Shown here in pieces: positions 39,532-45,754 of a stretch of 51,512 nt of DNA. The notes beneath the pieces are model-generated. The model did no database searches. It had not been told where the DNA came from and saw nothing but the letters and a program-made list of their open reading frames with translations. Position 1 is the stretch's first letter, and each line of letters opens with the position of its first letter. Source of the DNA: Kiritimatiellia bacterium (GTDB lineage: Bacteria; Verrucomicrobiota; Kiritimatiellia; RFP12; UBA1067); NCBI GenBank assembly GCA_016284515.1, contig JAEEOY010000275.1, positions 1-51,512 of the forward strand, read 5' to 3'. Position numbers and translations under genes: made by a program.

Positions 39532-39604
39532 AGAGCATTAGTACAAAGAGAGCGAAGAGTCAAAGTTTTGTCCACGCCGGAACTTTTTGAAGGAGGGTCT
39601 AAAA

Positions 39605-42600
39605 ATGAAGAAATCAATGCTCGTAGCTATGGTAATGATGGTGGCTGGAATGGCGGCTGGCGGCGTCATTTGCTCGGGAGATAGTACGCTCGTTGCGATT
39701 GATTTGCGTGATGAACCTGTTGTAGATATCATTAACATATCATGGAATGCTGCTTGGGTCGGTAATAATACAAATGCGACAATCGTTATTACGGACAATG
39801 GTGAAGAGGTGAAGCGCGCTATTGGTGAAGGCGAGTTCGCTCACGCACTTTCTGGCGGTGGACGACATGAGTTAACCTATACGACATACATCGACGGTAT
39901 TGCGCAGGATGAGGTATATGCGGTTACAGTATTCCAGGGCTGGAAGTGTGAAGTTGTGGATGGAGGCGTGGTGATGGTTGAGGCTTCACAGAAACATGGT
40001 GATGTTGTAATCCCAGAAGAAATTGATGGTCGTGTAGTGACAGGTATTGGAGTATGTGCATTCAGAAACTGCGTTGATTTGACGAGCGTGACGATACCGG
40101 ACAGTGTGACGAACATTGGGGATGGTGCGTTTTCCGGCTGCAACGGGGTGACGAGTGTGACGATTCCGCAGGCTGTGTGTTCTTCAGGGTTGTCAACGGT
40201 TTTCCCTTCGGCCTATCAATCAATAACTAATGTAACTATCTCTGGCAGTGTCACGAACATCGGTAGTTCTGCGTTCTCCGGCTGTAGCGGGCTGACGAGT
40301 GTGATGATACCGAATAGCGTGACGAGCATCGGGGATTCTGCGTTTTCCGGTTGTAGCGGTCTGACGAGTGTGACAATACCCAACAGCGTGACGAGCATCG
40401 GGTCATCTGCGTTCTCCGGTTGCAGCGGTCTTACGAGCGTGACGATACCAGACAGCGTGACGACCATTGGGGATCGTGCGTTCTCCGGCTGCCGCGCTCT
40501 TACGAGCATAACGATACCTGGCAGCGTGACGAGCATCGGGTCGTCTGTGTTCTCTGGTTGCAGTGGACTGGAAGAAATGACATTGCCTTTCATCGGCGCT
40601 AAACGCGGCAACACTGGGAGCTCCGACTCGCTGTTTGGCTACATCTTCGGCACTTCGTCTTATTCTGGGGGAACAGCGACTAAGCAATACTGTTCTGGTT
40701 CGTCATATTCGACATACTACATACCTTCTTTATTGAAGACGGTTGTGGTTACGGATGAAATGGCACTAGGATATGGTGCGTTCAATAATTGCAGCGGGTT
40801 AGCAAATGTGGAGATGCCGAACAGTATGACGAGCATCGGGGGAAGTGCGTTCTCCGGCTGCAGCGGGCTTACGAGTGTGGAGATACCGAACAGTGTGACG
40901 AGCATCGGGTCTTCTGCGTTCTCCGGCTGTAGTGGGCTTACGAATGTGACAATACCCAACAGCGTGACGAGCATAGGACAGTATGCGTTCGACGGCTGCA
41001 GCGGGCTTAAGGACATGGTGGTACCGCAATATGTTATTGACCGTCAAATCCGTAATGTGTTTTCATCATCCTATTCGTCAATTACAAATGTAGACTATTC
41101 TTCTGTCATAACCAACATCGGGCCTTCTGCATTCTACGGTTGCAGCGGACTTACGAACGTAACGATACCCGACAGCGTGACGAGCATTGCTTCTTCTGCG
41201 TTCTCCGGTTGCAGCGGGCTTACGAGCGTGACGATACCGAATAGTGTGACGAGCATCGGGTCATCTGCGTTCTCCGGCTGTAGTGGGCTTACGAGCGTGA
41301 CGATTCCGAACAGCGTGACGAGCGTCGGGGATTATGCGTTCTACAACTGTAGCGGGCTTAAGGACGTGGTGGTACCGCAATATGTTCTTGACCGTCAAAT
41401 CCGTAATGTGTTTTCATCATCCTATTCGTCAATTACGAATGTAGCGTATTCTTCGGTCATAACCAACATCGGGTCTTCTGCGTTCCACGGCTGTAGCGGG
41501 CTGACGAGTGTGATGATGCCGGACGGCGTGACAAGCATCGGGTCTTCTGCATTCTACGGTTGTAGCGGGCTTACGAGCGTGACGATACCGGACAGCGTGA
41601 CGAGCATCGGGTCTTATGCATTCTCCGACTGCAGCGGGCTTACGAGCGTGACGATTCTGGACAGCGTTACGAATATCGCGGACTATGCGTTTGCGGGGTG
41701 TACGAATTTGCAGACGGAAGTGTGTGGCGGGTATAGGGTGTTGGATGGATGGCTGATTGGCTACACGGACGATGCCGAGGAGACGATACCCGATGCGGAC
41801 AAGTTGAAGGGGATTTGCAGCGAGGCGCTGAAGGGATGTACAGCGTTGAGGCGGCTGGAGTTCGGCGACAGGGCGCGGCTTGTGTCCATTGGCGCGGAGG
41901 CGCTTAAGGGATGCACTGAGTTGAAGACGCTTGTGCTGCCGCCGAGCCTTACGCGAATCGGTGACGAGGCGTTTATGGGATGCTCGTATCTCGACAACGT
42001 AATCGTACCGGGAAGTGTTAAGTCCATCGGCAATCGCGCGTTCAAGAACTGCACGGGATTTACAGCTGCACAGATTGAGCATGGCGTGGAGTCGATAGGC
42101 GATGAGGCGTTCTACGCAGATTGGCAGATAGCGGAGGTCGACATTCCGTCTACCGTTACGAATATCGGCGTGAATGCGTTTGGCGGCGACAGCTCAATCA
42201 TCCGAGTTGGGCTGCGCGGCGACGTACGGCCGGTTTCGCAGATATTCTCGAACTACAAGTACATCCGAGAGGCGACGGTGAAGGAAGGGGACAAGGCTAT
42301 AGTCGACGGATTGTTCCGCGACTGCTCGCAGTTGTCGGCTGTGCATTTTCTCGGAAACTGTCCGTCGCTTGTCGAAAGCGGAGAGAACCTATATCGAGAC
42401 ACAAGAAATACGCTTACTACTTACGCAAGGACTGGCTCGACGGGCTGGGACGGTACGCCTGGGTCGCACGCACTGCCGCAGGCGTGGCCGCTGTATGGAA
42501 GTTATCGGCGTTCCATCGCATGGTGGGACGAGCCGACATATCTGGTACTGTTTGATTCAAATGGCGGTACGCTGGGCGTACAGGACACATACCAGCGGTC

Positions 42601-45600
42601 GGAGCAGCCGTTTCTCCTGCCGCCGGAACCTGTGCAGACTGGATATGGTTTTGCGGGCTGGTGGACGAAGCCGTCTGGAGGTCTGCGCGTTACGTCCGAC
42701 ACGGTGTTCATCGAGGGCGTTTACACGTACATATACGCGCACTGGATGAAGGCGTACCGAGTGTTCCTGAATCCCGACGGTGGAACTGTGACGAACGACT
42801 ACGTGACATATCTGGACCAGACTGTCTACGGCGTGCTGCCTGCTGCGGTGCGGACAGGTTATGCGTTCGGCGGTTGGCGCTACAATGGGCGGACGATTCT
42901 GCCAAACTCGCAGATTGTGATGTCTGACGACCATACACTTACCGCGCAATGGGAGGCGTATCAGTACAGCATTCGATTCGATCCCAATGGAGGCGCCGGT
43001 GAAATGGACCCGCAGCCGATCACATATGACGAGGATACATCGCTTTCGCCAAATCAGTTCTCGTTGCAGGGATATATGTTCCAAGGATGGGCAATGACAT
43101 CAGATGGCCCGGTGGAGTACAATGAGCTGGCAAGCGTCAAGAACCTTACGAGTGAAGAGAACGGGGTTGTAACACTTTACGCCGTGTGGCAGGAAAAGCC
43201 AGCATCTATGTTGGCGATGGAGTCGGCATTTGGAGACGCCGCGACGGTTGCGGTTGACGAGAATGATAATATAGTCGTGACGCTCACGAATGATGTGAGC
43301 GGGACGGTGGAGATTCCGGACAACGTGGGGCCAGTGACGATTGACTTGAATGGACACAACATGGTGGGGGATGACGGCGGTCTCGGGGAGACCGCCCTAC
43401 CGGATGGTCCGGCGATTAGGATCGTGAAGGGCGACGGCGAGAGTGGCGGCGGCGTGGCGGCGACGCGGCTGGCGATTGTCGATACGTCGGATGGCGAGAA
43501 GGGGCAGATTTCCGGCGGTGGCGAGAGCGCGGGAATCGAGGTTGCGGAAGACGCCGCGACGGGGGTGAAGCTTGACGTCGAAGAGGGCGTTGGTGTCTTC
43601 AACGGCGACGGAAGCGAGCAGGAGCTTAAGCCGAAGCTCGTGGGCACTGGCAAGGTGACGGTGCCGAAGACGTGGAAGACGGGCCAGAAGGTTACGTGGA
43701 AGGCGACGGCCGACAAGGGCAGCGTGTTCGCGCGCTGGGAAGGTCCGCTTGTCGACTCACTGAACCTCACGGTGAACGAGCGGCGCAATCCGTCTTTGGC
43801 GTTCGCCGTGCCGGAGGGTTTCGAGACGAATATGGTGACGGCGGCGTTCATCCCAATTGACGACGACGGACTCTACTCGCTCGGCATCACGCATACGGAA
43901 TTCGAGCTGAAGGAAGCAGTGTCCGACGTGCGGGTTACTGACGATTCGCAGTCGTATGTGACGGCCTCGGCGAGCGGATTGCCGACGGGACTCAAGTTCG
44001 ACGCGAAGAAGATGACGATTGCTGGGACCCCGACGAAGAGCGGCGTCTACTGGGTGCAGGTCAAGGCGAAGAACGCATCTGGTTACCAGTGGGCGGAGAA
44101 CGTGAGGGTAACGGTCTCCGGAGGCGGCACGGAGGCAAAGGAGCCGAAACTGACGCGCACGGCGTACTATCCGCTCACGGTAATCTGCGCCAACGATGGC
44201 GGCACAGTAAGCGGAACTGGAGTGTACGCAGAGGGCAAGAAGGTGTCGGTAAAGGCGACGCCCGCGAAGGGGTATGTGTTCGCCGGCTGGCATGAAACGG
44301 CGAACAGTGAAAAGGGAACGGTGAATGGCGTGGATGGTGCGGATTATCGTTCGGCATCTCTGAACGTGACCGTTCCGGAGACGCGGTATGTGTTCGCGCT
44401 GTTTGCCACGAAGGAAGATGACGCCGACAGTTTGAAGGTCGCGGTGGAGGATGTGACGACGGAGAAGGACGGGACGATGGCGCTCGACTTGGGCGCGTGC
44501 GTAGCGTCATTGTCGCTTCCGAAGCTCGCGGTGTCTGGGCTGCCGACAGGTCTCAAGTACGACGCGAAGACGCTCAAGGTTGTCGGCAAGGCGACGAAGC
44601 CGGGCGTCTACACGGTGACCGTGAAGGCTACGAACGCGGCAGTGACCAGGGCGACCGATGCAAGCACGGCGACATTTAGGATCACGGTGCCCAACTTCGA
44701 GTGCGCGGCGCTGCCAATGCTCAAGCCCGAAACAGATGCATACGGCGTTGTCCGGTCAGGCGTCAAATTTGACGACGGTCTTGTGGACTGCTCGCCCGCA
44801 GAGGGGTGGTCCGTCAAGGTCGCCGGGCTTCCCTCGGGCCTCAAGTGGGACGCGAAGATAGGCAAAATCGTCGGCGTTCCAACGGCGAAGGCAGGGTCTT
44901 ACACCGTGACGTTCACGGCGTCGAAGAAGGGCGAGCCGAACCAGATCGCAACGATCACGCTCAATGTAGAGGCGTTGCCGACGTGGGTTGTCGGGACATT
45001 CGATGGAAGTGTGATTGTCAGCGGCGCGTTCGGTGATCGCGCCCTACCGTGTGGGTTAGTCGCTATGACCGTCGCGGCGAACGGGAAGATAAGCGGCAAG
45101 GTGATTGACGCCGACGGAACATGGACGTTGAGCGCGGCGGCGTTCGATTCGGTCGAAGGTCCGGTGTCGAATGCCGAGGAACTAGTATTCCACGCGACCG
45201 TCATCGGCAAGAGCGGGAAGATGGCGATTACCAACGAGGTGGAGATAGCGGCGGAGGAGGTTGCGGCGCGGCCGGAGTCCGCGCCCTACCTTCGCGGGGT
45301 GGTTACGGCGCGTTCGGTGATCGCGCCCTACCAGAATTTGGAGCCGGGCGTTGAATGGTGCGCGTGGCAGAACCTGTGGAAGACTGAGCCGTGGAAGACG
45401 GATGCGAAGGCGTTTGCGAAGGCGAGGCCGGTTGAAATTCAGGTTGGCGGCGCGCTCGGTGATCGCGCCCTACCGTATGGCGTTGTGACTCTCAAGTTCG
45501 CGGCGACAGGGGCTGTAACGGCGAGCGGGAAGTTCGTTACGGGGCAGGATGCGAGTGGCAGGGACATCGTCTATTCGGCAACTTGCTCGTCGGTGCTGAT

Positions 45601-45754
45601 ACCGGACGGAGACGGCGTGCGCGGTGCGCCCGCCCTACCGGATGCGCTTGACTTCCGAGTATTCCTCTACTTCGCGCCGAAGGTGGGCAAATTCGACGGA
45701 TATTCCGACGAGGTTCCTCTCGTCTGGGATGGTGTCGATTTTTCGGTGAAGTAG
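39605..45754 (+). CDS. Giant BspA-like leucine-rich-repeat surface protein
   Basis: A 2049-residue exported protein. The signal peptide is MKKSMLVAMVMMVAGMAAG; AAGGAGG lies upstream of ATG 39605. Residues about 140-900 hold more than twenty BspA-type (LRR_5) repeats of about 23 residues (consensus TSIGSSAFSGCSGLTSVTIP). Three InlB B/Listeria-Bacteroides repeats follow at about 978-1195 (FDSNGGT, LNPDGGT, FDPNGGA, each ending in HW, QW or VW). Then come at least three Ig-like putative-binding units (LPTGLKFDAKKMTIAGTPTK) and two related C-terminal domains. BspA-like proteins act in adhesion and host binding. The DNA holds a 351-base internal duplication and six palindromic insertions. Confidence 0.9.
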   Translation: MKKSMLVAMVMMVAGMAAGGVICSGDSTLVAIDLRDEPVVDIINISWNAAWVGNNTNATIVITDNGEEVKRAIGEGEFAHALSGGGRHELTYTTYIDGIAQDEVYAVTVFQGWKCEVVDGGVVMVEASQKHGDVVIPEEIDGRVVTGIGVCAFRNCVDLTSVTIPDSVTNIGDGAFSGCNGVTSVTIPQAVCSSGLSTVFPSAYQSITNVTISGSVTNIGSSAFSGCSGLTSVMIPNSVTSIGDSAFSGCSGLTSVTIPNSVTSIGSSAFSGCSGLTSVTIPDSVTTIGDRAFSGCRALTSITIPGSVTSIGSSVFSGCSGLEEMTLPFIGAKRGNTGSSDSLFGYIFGTSSYSGGTATKQYCSGSSYSTYYIPSLLKTVVVTDEMALGYGAFNNCSGLANVEMPNSMTSIGGSAFSGCSGLTSVEIPNSVTSIGSSAFSGCSGLTNVTIPNSVTSIGQYAFDGCSGLKDMVVPQYVIDRQIRNVFSSSYSSITNVDYSSVITNIGPSAFYGCSGLTNVTIPDSVTSIASSAFSGCSGLTSVTIPNSVTSIGSSAFSGCSGLTSVTIPNSVTSVGDYAFYNCSGLKDVVVPQYVLDRQIRNVFSSSYSSITNVAYSSVITNIGSSAFHGCSGLTSVMMPDGVTSIGSSAFYGCSGLTSVTIPDSVTSIGSYAFSDCSGLTSVTILDSVTNIADYAFAGCTNLQTEVCGGYRVLDGWLIGYTDDAEETIPDADKLKGICSEALKGCTALRRLEFGDRARLVSIGAEALKGCTELKTLVLPPSLTRIGDEAFMGCSYLDNVIVPGSVKSIGNRAFKNCTGFTAAQIEHGVESIGDEAFYADWQIAEVDIPSTVTNIGVNAFGGDSSIIRVGLRGDVRPVSQIFSNYKYIREATVKEGDKAIVDGLFRDCSQLSAVHFLGNCPSLVESGENLYRDTRNTLTTYARTGSTGWDGTPGSHALPQAWPLYGSYRRSIAWWDEPTYLVLFDSNGGTLGVQDTYQRSEQPFLLPPEPVQTGYGFAGWWTKPSGGLRVTSDTVFIEGVYTYIYAHWMKAYRVFLNPDGGTVTNDYVTYLDQTVYGVLPAAVRTGYAFGGWRYNGRTILPNSQIVMSDDHTLTAQWEAYQYSIRFDPNGGAGEMDPQPITYDEDTSLSPNQFSLQGYMFQGWAMTSDGPVEYNELASVKNLTSEENGVVTLYAVWQEKPASMLAMESAFGDAATVAVDENDNIVVTLTNDVSGTVEIPDNVGPVTIDLNGHNMVGDDGGLGETALPDGPAIRIVKGDGESGGGVAATRLAIVDTSDGEKGQISGGGESAGIEVAEDAATGVKLDVEEGVGVFNGDGSEQELKPKLVGTGKVTVPKTWKTGQKVTWKATADKGSVFARWEGPLVDSLNLTVNERRNPSLAFAVPEGFETNMVTAAFIPIDDDGLYSLGITHTEFELKEAVSDVRVTDDSQSYVTASASGLPTGLKFDAKKMTIAGTPTKSGVYWVQVKAKNASGYQWAENVRVTVSGGGTEAKEPKLTRTAYYPLTVICANDGGTVSGTGVYAEGKKVSVKATPAKGYVFAGWHETANSEKGTVNGVDGADYRSASLNVTVPETRYVFALFATKEDDADSLKVAVEDVTTEKDGTMALDLGACVASLSLPKLAVSGLPTGLKYDAKTLKVVGKATKPGVYTVTVKATNAAVTRATDASTATFRITVPNFECAALPMLKPETDAYGVVRSGVKFDDGLVDCSPAEGWSVKVAGLPSGLKWDAKIGKIVGVPTAKAGSYTVTFTASKKGEPNQIATITLNVEALPTWVVGTFDGSVIVSGAFGDRALPCGLVAMTVAANGKISGKVIDADGTWTLSAAAFDSVEGPVSNAEELVFHATVIGKSGKMAITNEVEIAAEEVAARPESAPYLRGVVTARSVIAPYQNLEPGVEWCAWQNLWKTEPWKTDAKAFAKARPVEIQVGGALGDRALPYGVVTLKFAATGAVTASGKFVTGQDASGRDIVYSATCSSVLIPDGDGVRGAPALPDALDFRVFLYFAPKVGKFDGYSDEVPLVWDGVDFSVK
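43376..43401. repeat. Intragenic palindromic element, copy A
   Basis: GGCGGTCTC-GGG-GAGACCGCC followed by CTACC. It is read in phase 0 of the host gene as GGLGETALP. It has the same hairpin-plus-CTACC layout as the five copies at 45023-45639. Confidence 0.75.
45023..45639. repeat. Cluster of five intragenic palindromic elements, copies B-F
   Basis: Hairpins at 45023-45043, 45265-45285, 45307-45327, 45449-45469 and 45614-45634 are each followed by CTACC. Three share the core GGCGCG-(T/C)TCGGTGAT-CGCGCC. Copies at 45023, 45449 and 45614 are read in phase 0 (for example GAFGDRALP), while those at 45265 and 45307 are read in phase 2 (ARPESAPYL, ARSVIAPYQ). Confidence 0.8.

What the first reader, a model, noticed from the sequence alone, without database searches (positions are those of the whole stretch)
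43376..45639. Palindromic elements inserted inside a coding sequence in two reading phases
Six hairpin-plus-CTACC elements lie within the BspA-like gene. Four are read in one phase (GDRALP-type peptides) and two in another (SVIAPY-type peptides), yet all keep the frame open. This is what mobile, protein-tolerated palindromes would look like, comparable in concept to Rickettsia palindromic elements, and copies share the loop TCGGTGAT.
Basis: seen in the sequence. Interest (0 to 1): 0.75.

Follow-up and report, generated by a model that had tools for sequence, protein, structure and literature searches.

The report
Mobile palindromes inserted inside protein genes
A 27-base hairpin-forming repeat has inserted six times into one surface-protein gene of a gut bacterium, and elsewhere in the same genome into genes for ordinary enzymes, each copy adding about nine amino acids without breaking the reading frame; repeats of this kind inside genes have been described before, but this is an unusually clear and gene-rich case.

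Summary
Six palindromes followed by CTACC lie in the BspA-like ORF 39587-45754, four in one codon phase and two in another. Read on the other strand each is a 27-nt GTAG-tagged REP: GGTAG, a hairpin, then G. The genome holds 32 copies at E<=0.01. Stems covary; flanks of the six copies are mostly unlike each other; the six sites show gaps of 7 aa or more in 36 of 90 homologue alignments, against 679 of 9160 control boxes. The same element sits in glutamate synthase, CarA (inverted pair), altronate dehydratase, an aminotransferase, threonine synthase, DprA and others: I place 18 of 32 copies inside genes. In glutamate synthase, seven aligned relatives lack 27 nt. The model matches 42 of 58 genus genomes and 50 of 194 phylum genomes. 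Intragenic GTAG REPs were published in 2013, including in the verrucomicrobium Opitutus terrae. The mobilising enzyme is not established: 1 of 62 Y1-transposase loci examined has a clear copy nearby.

The parts
39587..45754 (+). Host ORF, 2055 aa: BspA-type LRR_5 region, Flg_new repeats, He_PIG and Flg_new_2 domains, then a C-terminal region
43375..43401 (-). 27-nt GTAG REP, copy 1; read by the gene as GGLGETALP
   Evidence: 2 of 3 homologue alignments that span it have a 9-aa gap here
45022..45048 (-). 27-nt GTAG REP, copy 2; read as GAFGDRALP; identical to copy 4
   Evidence: 8 of 22 spanning alignments have a gap of 7 aa or more, exactly 9 in own-genome paralogues L071 and L072
45264..45290 (-). 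27-nt GTAG REP, copy 3; second phase, read as AARPESAPY
   Evidence: 8 of 17 spanning alignments gapped, 10 aa in L071, L072, L077, L080
45306..45332 (-). 27-nt GTAG REP, copy 4; second phase, read as TARSVIAPY
   Evidence: 9 of 17 spanning alignments gapped (7 to 23 aa), boundaries not clean
45448..45474 (-). 27-nt GTAG REP, copy 5; read as GALGDRALP; identical to five copies on other contigs
   Evidence: 3 of 17 spanning alignments gapped, all exactly 9 aa (L071, L072, L084)
45613..45639 (-). 27-nt GTAG REP, copy 6; read as GVRGAPALP
   Evidence: 6 of 14 spanning alignments gapped, 9 to 11 aa

Best explanation
The six elements are copies of a GTAG-tagged REP, a 27-nt non-autonomous palindromic element that inserts as a unit. 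Because 27 is a multiple of three and the window variants are free of stops in four or five of their six reading phases, an insertion into a loop or linker adds about nine residues and leaves the gene readable; insertions elsewhere in proteins are presumably purged. After insertion the palindrome is free to drift as ordinary protein sequence. Shown: element identity, dispersal, stem covariation, 27-nt presence/absence in one conserved enzyme, and diverged copies at shared sites (my reading of two alignments). Inferred: that copies spread by single-strand transposition catalysed in trans by a RAYT-type Y1 (HUH) transposase (I put this step at about 0.6), that there is no target duplication in general (read by eye at one site), and that the window gene collected six because its C-terminal region tolerates loop insertions and because some copies spread locally (copies 2 and 4 are identical and of a variant not seen among the other listed copies of this genome). 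The confidence given is for identity and insertion, not for the transposase step.
For: 32 copies at E<=0.01 on 20 contigs of a 3.86-Mb genome. Stem covariation: 6 of 9 pairs change on both sides, score reached in 0 of 500 shuffles and above all slid controls. 27th base G in 58 of 59 copies. GltB: 20 of 29 other genus loci are net 9 aa shorter at the site; DNA shows a 27-nt gap in all seven relatives aligned; solved GltB 7mfm also lacks 9 aa there. UxaA: filled in own genome and G010, apparently diverged copy in G026, 24-nt gap in four relatives. CarA: 63 nt where 46 of 80 related loci have 3-6 nt. Window sites: 36 of 90 alignments gapped against 679 of 9160 control boxes. Inverted pairs at C154 and C161. 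Six copies in one gene have a Poisson probability of about 2e-11 if copies land independently.
Against: No transposition was observed. Of 62 Y1_Tnp loci examined (of 123 matches), one has a clear copy in the fetched flank (L341, about 670 nt upstream); weaker or differently sized hairpins lie near L166, L345 and L158. One genome with 13 copies had no Y1_Tnp match (G079). At the window sites 54 of 90 alignments have no gap of 7 aa or more, and gap lengths for copies 4 and 6 vary. Homologues of the window region are at most 56% identical over their matched stretches, so the window gene itself has no DNA-level empty site. The altronate dehydratase gap is 24 nt, not 27, and other relatives there have other lengths.
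Confidence: 0.88

Rival explanations
1. The copies descend from one ancestral protein repeat of the BspA-like gene, and the palindrome is a by-product of codon choice.
For: Copies 2 and 5 lie before similar peptide stretches (GLVAMTVAANGKISGK, GVVTLKFAATGAVTASGK) and their 30 downstream bases are 63% identical; two weaker downstream pairs also exceed the 95% null.
Against: Two codon phases; mean flank identity close to the null; the same element in unrelated genes and between genes; the sites of copies 2 and 5 are both empty in paralogues L071 and L072.
Confidence: 0.03
2. The element spreads without a transposase, by template switching or gene conversion at hairpins during replication or repair.
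For: Little linkage to Y1 transposase genes; near-identical copies close together in the window gene.
Against: A fixed 27-nt unit with a near-constant end base and a flank preference (pyrimidine before it in 53 of 59, C after it in 41 of 59) looks like defined cleavage; flanking sequence is mostly not shared between copies.
Confidence: 0.2
3. The palindromes are kept for a function in the cell, such as a protein-binding site on DNA or an RNA hairpin that stabilises or pauses the message.
For: Conserved tag and pairing across copies; distribution over 35 of 106 sampled genera of the phylum.
Against: Copy number varies from 0 to 54 between genomes of one genus, many of them incomplete; at the two conserved sites compared across the genus most relatives lack the element.
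Confidence: 0.07

Closest known systems
GTAG-tagged REP elements, including intragenic ones (Di Nocera et al. 2013, PMC3733652; I read section 0 part 1 and section 15 and saw passages; figures and supplementary tables not seen)
   Same: GTAG tag at one end, 20-40 nt palindrome, sub-families with alternative complementary stems, inverted dimers, copies inside ORFs of known proteins, presence in a verrucomicrobium (O. [quoted passage not shown]
   Different: Here I place 18 of 32 copies of one genome in genes and six in a single gene; the paper says most REPs are intergenic, and describes ORFs with two insertions and clusters encoding 43 to 82 aa in Thauera and R. conorii. Association with a RAYT gene is weak here.
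Rickettsia palindromic elements (RPE)
   Same: Palindromes inserted in frame in unrelated protein genes, tolerated by the protein (as described in PMC3733652).
   Different: R. conorii RPEs are said there to end in CGTC; the elements here carry GTAG.
BIME / REPIN (paired REPs; names recalled, BIME also in PMC3733652)
   Same: Two REPs in inverted orientation side by side, seen at C154:7115-7169 and C161:1954-2011.
   Different: Most of the 32 copies here, and all six in the window, are not such pairs; the six window copies share one orientation.

Membership tests
GTAG REP superfamily | Terminal unpaired GTAG motif | tested here: met
   GGTAG at the 5' end of the REP strand in all six window copies and in 28 of 29 aligned copies (GGCAG in C210)
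GTAG REP superfamily | Short palindrome with a paired stem, stems varying by compensatory change | tested here: met
   9 pairs, 89.4% of cells paired, covariation score reached in 0 of 500 shuffles
GTAG REP superfamily | Many dispersed copies, singly and as inverted dimers | tested here: met
   32 copies at E<=0.01 on 20 contigs; two inverted pairs
GTAG REP superfamily | Predominantly extragenic (typical rather than strictly defining: intragenic GTAG REPs are in print) | tested here: not met
   18 of 32 own-genome copies placed inside ORFs with Pfam-supported products; gene calls are rough and only 8 of 30 scored copies pass a strict two-flank coding score
RAYT-mobilised REP (REPtron) | Copies of the element flank a RAYT (Y1_Tnp) gene | tested here: inconclusive
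   1 of 62 Y1 loci examined (of 123 matches) has a clear copy (L341); weaker or differently sized hairpins near L166, L345 and L158
Rickettsia palindromic element | In-frame insertion in protein genes | tested here: met
Rickettsia palindromic element | CGTC terminal motif of the R. conorii elements | tested here: not met
   consensus ends are GGTAG and CGCCG; the RPE motif is taken from PMC3733652

The most novel reading that the evidence does not exclude
A phylum-wide REP lineage in Verrucomicrobiota has a fixed length of 27 nt, nine codons, and so behaves as a coding-compatible mobile element: it continually seeds nine-residue (or, as pairs, about twenty-residue) insertions into loops and interdomain linkers of ordinary enzymes, which then decay into normal-looking linker sequence, making it a lasting source of protein length variation.
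Probability: 0.45. Interest if true: 0.6.

Novelty: new member of a known kind. Interest (0 to 1): 0.45.

Why it matters
It offers a clean system for asking how mobile DNA makes new protein segments: filled, apparently decayed and empty versions of the same site exist among relatives for conserved enzymes (GltB, UxaA; for CarA and these), and the frame-neutral length makes the neutral expectation easy to state. It also adds a large, mostly uncultured gut lineage to the bacteria known to carry intragenic REPs.

Tried and rejected
Rfam at its gathering thresholds gave only a tRNA in the window. The ancestral-protein-repeat reading was tested by flank identity and rejected for most pairs; copies 2 and 5 keep some downstream similarity. 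A strand bias (all six window copies antisense to the gene) was considered; in other genes of the genome both orientations occur, so nothing is built on it. A RAYT next to the elements was sought in 62 of 123 Y1_Tnp loci and found clearly once. A single-sequence structure model of the C-terminal region had mean pLDDT 34.7 and was not used. The codon-usage score was trained on window ORFs that I picked by length and is rough: with both flanks above 0.3 in one frame only 8 of 30 own-genome copies and 6 of 29 copies from relatives (one per genome) pass, so the figure of 18 of 32 rests on ORFs plus Pfam and homology, and in some hosts (C161, C67, first C207 copy) Pfam does not match on both sides. 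Fourteen of 32 copies are intergenic or unassigned; C183 was not examined. Literature searches listed one paper that I recognised as being about intragenic GTAG REPs (PMC3733652) and none pairing 'repetitive extragenic palindrom' with 'Kiritimatiell'; only this open library was searched, and apart from PMC3733652 I saw listings only.

Full report
What is there. The window gene 39587-45754 (+) encodes 2055 residues with BspA-type leucine-rich repeats, Listeria-Bacteroides repeats and Ig-like domains. Six palindromes followed by CTACC lie in its 3' part, five of them within 618 nt. Three of six share the loop TCGGTGAT; the other three have different stems and loops that still pair.

The element. 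A pattern search of the window's own genome (3.86 Mb, 292 contigs, 92% complete) found 13 places within three mismatches of one window copy (reversed-pattern control 0) and 26 distinct places with a looser pattern (27 rows, one place listed twice; control 9). Twenty-nine copies align in 28 columns. Six of nine stem pairs show changes on both sides; the covariation score is 0.316 against a shuffled mean of 0.075 (0 of 500 reach it) and 0.012-0.056 in slid controls. A covariance model built from these 29 finds 32 copies at E<=0.01 in the genome and 36 at E<=1. Since the model was built from copies of that genome, this is a count and not an independent proof. Over 59 copies (30 own, 29 from relatives, one per relative) the last base is G in 58, the base before the element is a pyrimidine in 53 and the base after it is C in 41.

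Insertion in the window gene. Twenty stretches holding homologues of the window region, six of them from its own genome, were compared by tblastn. Gaps of seven or more residues overlap the six sites in 36 of 90 spanning alignments, against 679 of 9160 nine-residue control boxes elsewhere in the same alignments. In own-genome paralogues L071 and L072 the gap is exactly 9 residues at copies 2 and 5 and 10 at copy 3. Not all fits: 54 of 90 have no such gap, and copies 4 and 6 have variable gap lengths. Thirty-base flanks of the six copies average 0.26 (upstream) and 0.34 (downstream) identity against 0.26 for random pairs; three of 15 downstream pairs exceed the 95% null level of 0.40, the highest being copies 2 and 5.

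Other genes. The same element lies inside glutamate synthase (C262), an ISP-type restriction enzyme (two copies, C207), altronate dehydratase (C258), CarA (an inverted pair, C154), a DegT-family aminotransferase (C247), a second BspA-like protein (C210), a 4Fe-4S protein (inverted pair, C161), threonine synthase (C67) and DprA (C197). With the six window copies that is 18 of 32. The remaining 14 are intergenic or unassigned. This placement rests on ORFs and Pfam matches; a strict coding score on both flanks passes only 8 of 30 own-genome copies and 6 of 29 from relatives. In altronate dehydratase and CarA the insertion falls between two Pfam domains, in DprA at the start of the second.

Empty sites. 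For glutamate synthase 29 other genus loci were compared: 20 are net nine residues shorter at the site, nine have other lengths, one of them (L259) apparently a diverged copy. The DNA alignment shows a 27-nt gap in all seven relatives included; the aligner's placement is shifted a few bases, and reading the codons by eye the two sides join without duplicated bases. The solved structure 7mfm lacks the nine residues too. In altronate dehydratase G010 shares the filled site, G026 appears to have a diverged copy, G034, G073, G068 and G029 have a 24-nt gap, and more distant loci have other lengths, so that site is not an exact 27. In CarA 46 of 80 related loci have 3-6 nt where this genome has 63; the other 34 have 9-117 nt, so this linker is a hotspot and not a clean test. 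The DegT comparison with 1o61 shows an 11-residue gap at the element.

Host and spread. The 80 named CarA relatives are labelled Kiritimatiellae, Lentisphaerae, Verrucomicrobia, Victivallales or uncultured bacterium, many from ruminant guts by their isolate names, which places the window there by inference. The model matches 42 of 58 genus genomes (own included) at E<=0.01, with 0 to 54 copies each, and 50 of 194 sampled genomes of the phylum (own included), in 35 of 106 genera, at E<=0.001. Many of the genus genomes are incomplete drafts.

Mechanism. The GTAG tag and the hairpin point to REPs, which have been hypothesised to be mobilised by RAYT transposases (PMC3733652, abstract). Y1_Tnp matches are present in 11 of 12 genus genomes and 15 of 15 other phylum genomes that I chose because they carry copies; genomes without copies were not compared, so this is no test of association, and G079, with 13 copies, has none. 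Of 62 such loci examined (of 123 matches) one has a clear copy about 670 nt upstream of the transposase (L341); L166 and L345 have matches at E of about 0.04, and L158 has a 28-nt GGTAG hairpin of another sequence about 280 nt upstream. The transposase step is therefore inferred.

Known or new. Intragenic GTAG REPs in genes for known proteins were reported in 2013, with the verrucomicrobium O. terrae richest; [quoted passage not shown] This finding is a new member of that kind. What stands out is the fixed nine-codon length, the share inside genes, six copies in one gene, and filled, apparently decayed and empty states of the same site among relatives.

Noticed in passing
L158:880-1713 and 1840-2110 (G065:C34): A Y1 transposase ORF contains several copies of another palindrome (GGGGACAGGCCCC), encoding GPVP peptides, with related copies in the upstream spacer: possibly a second intragenic palindrome family.
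   Followed up: no
L166:2016-2261 (G029:C22): Upstream of a Y1 transposase gene lies a tandem array of roughly 40-nt units ending in a 32-nt GGTAG hairpin related to the element.
   Followed up: partly
CarA linker, L172-L251: The linker between the two CarA domains varies from 1 to 39 codons by the measure in related genomes, including tandem GTGNGER-type repeats (L204, L184, L177).
   Followed up: partly
L082 and L042 (G007): Stretches with paralogues of the window gene in another genome carry GGTAG/GGCAG hairpins of a different stem type.
   Followed up: no
G063:C119:5557-5927: Four copies in alternating orientation within 371 nt.
   Followed up: no
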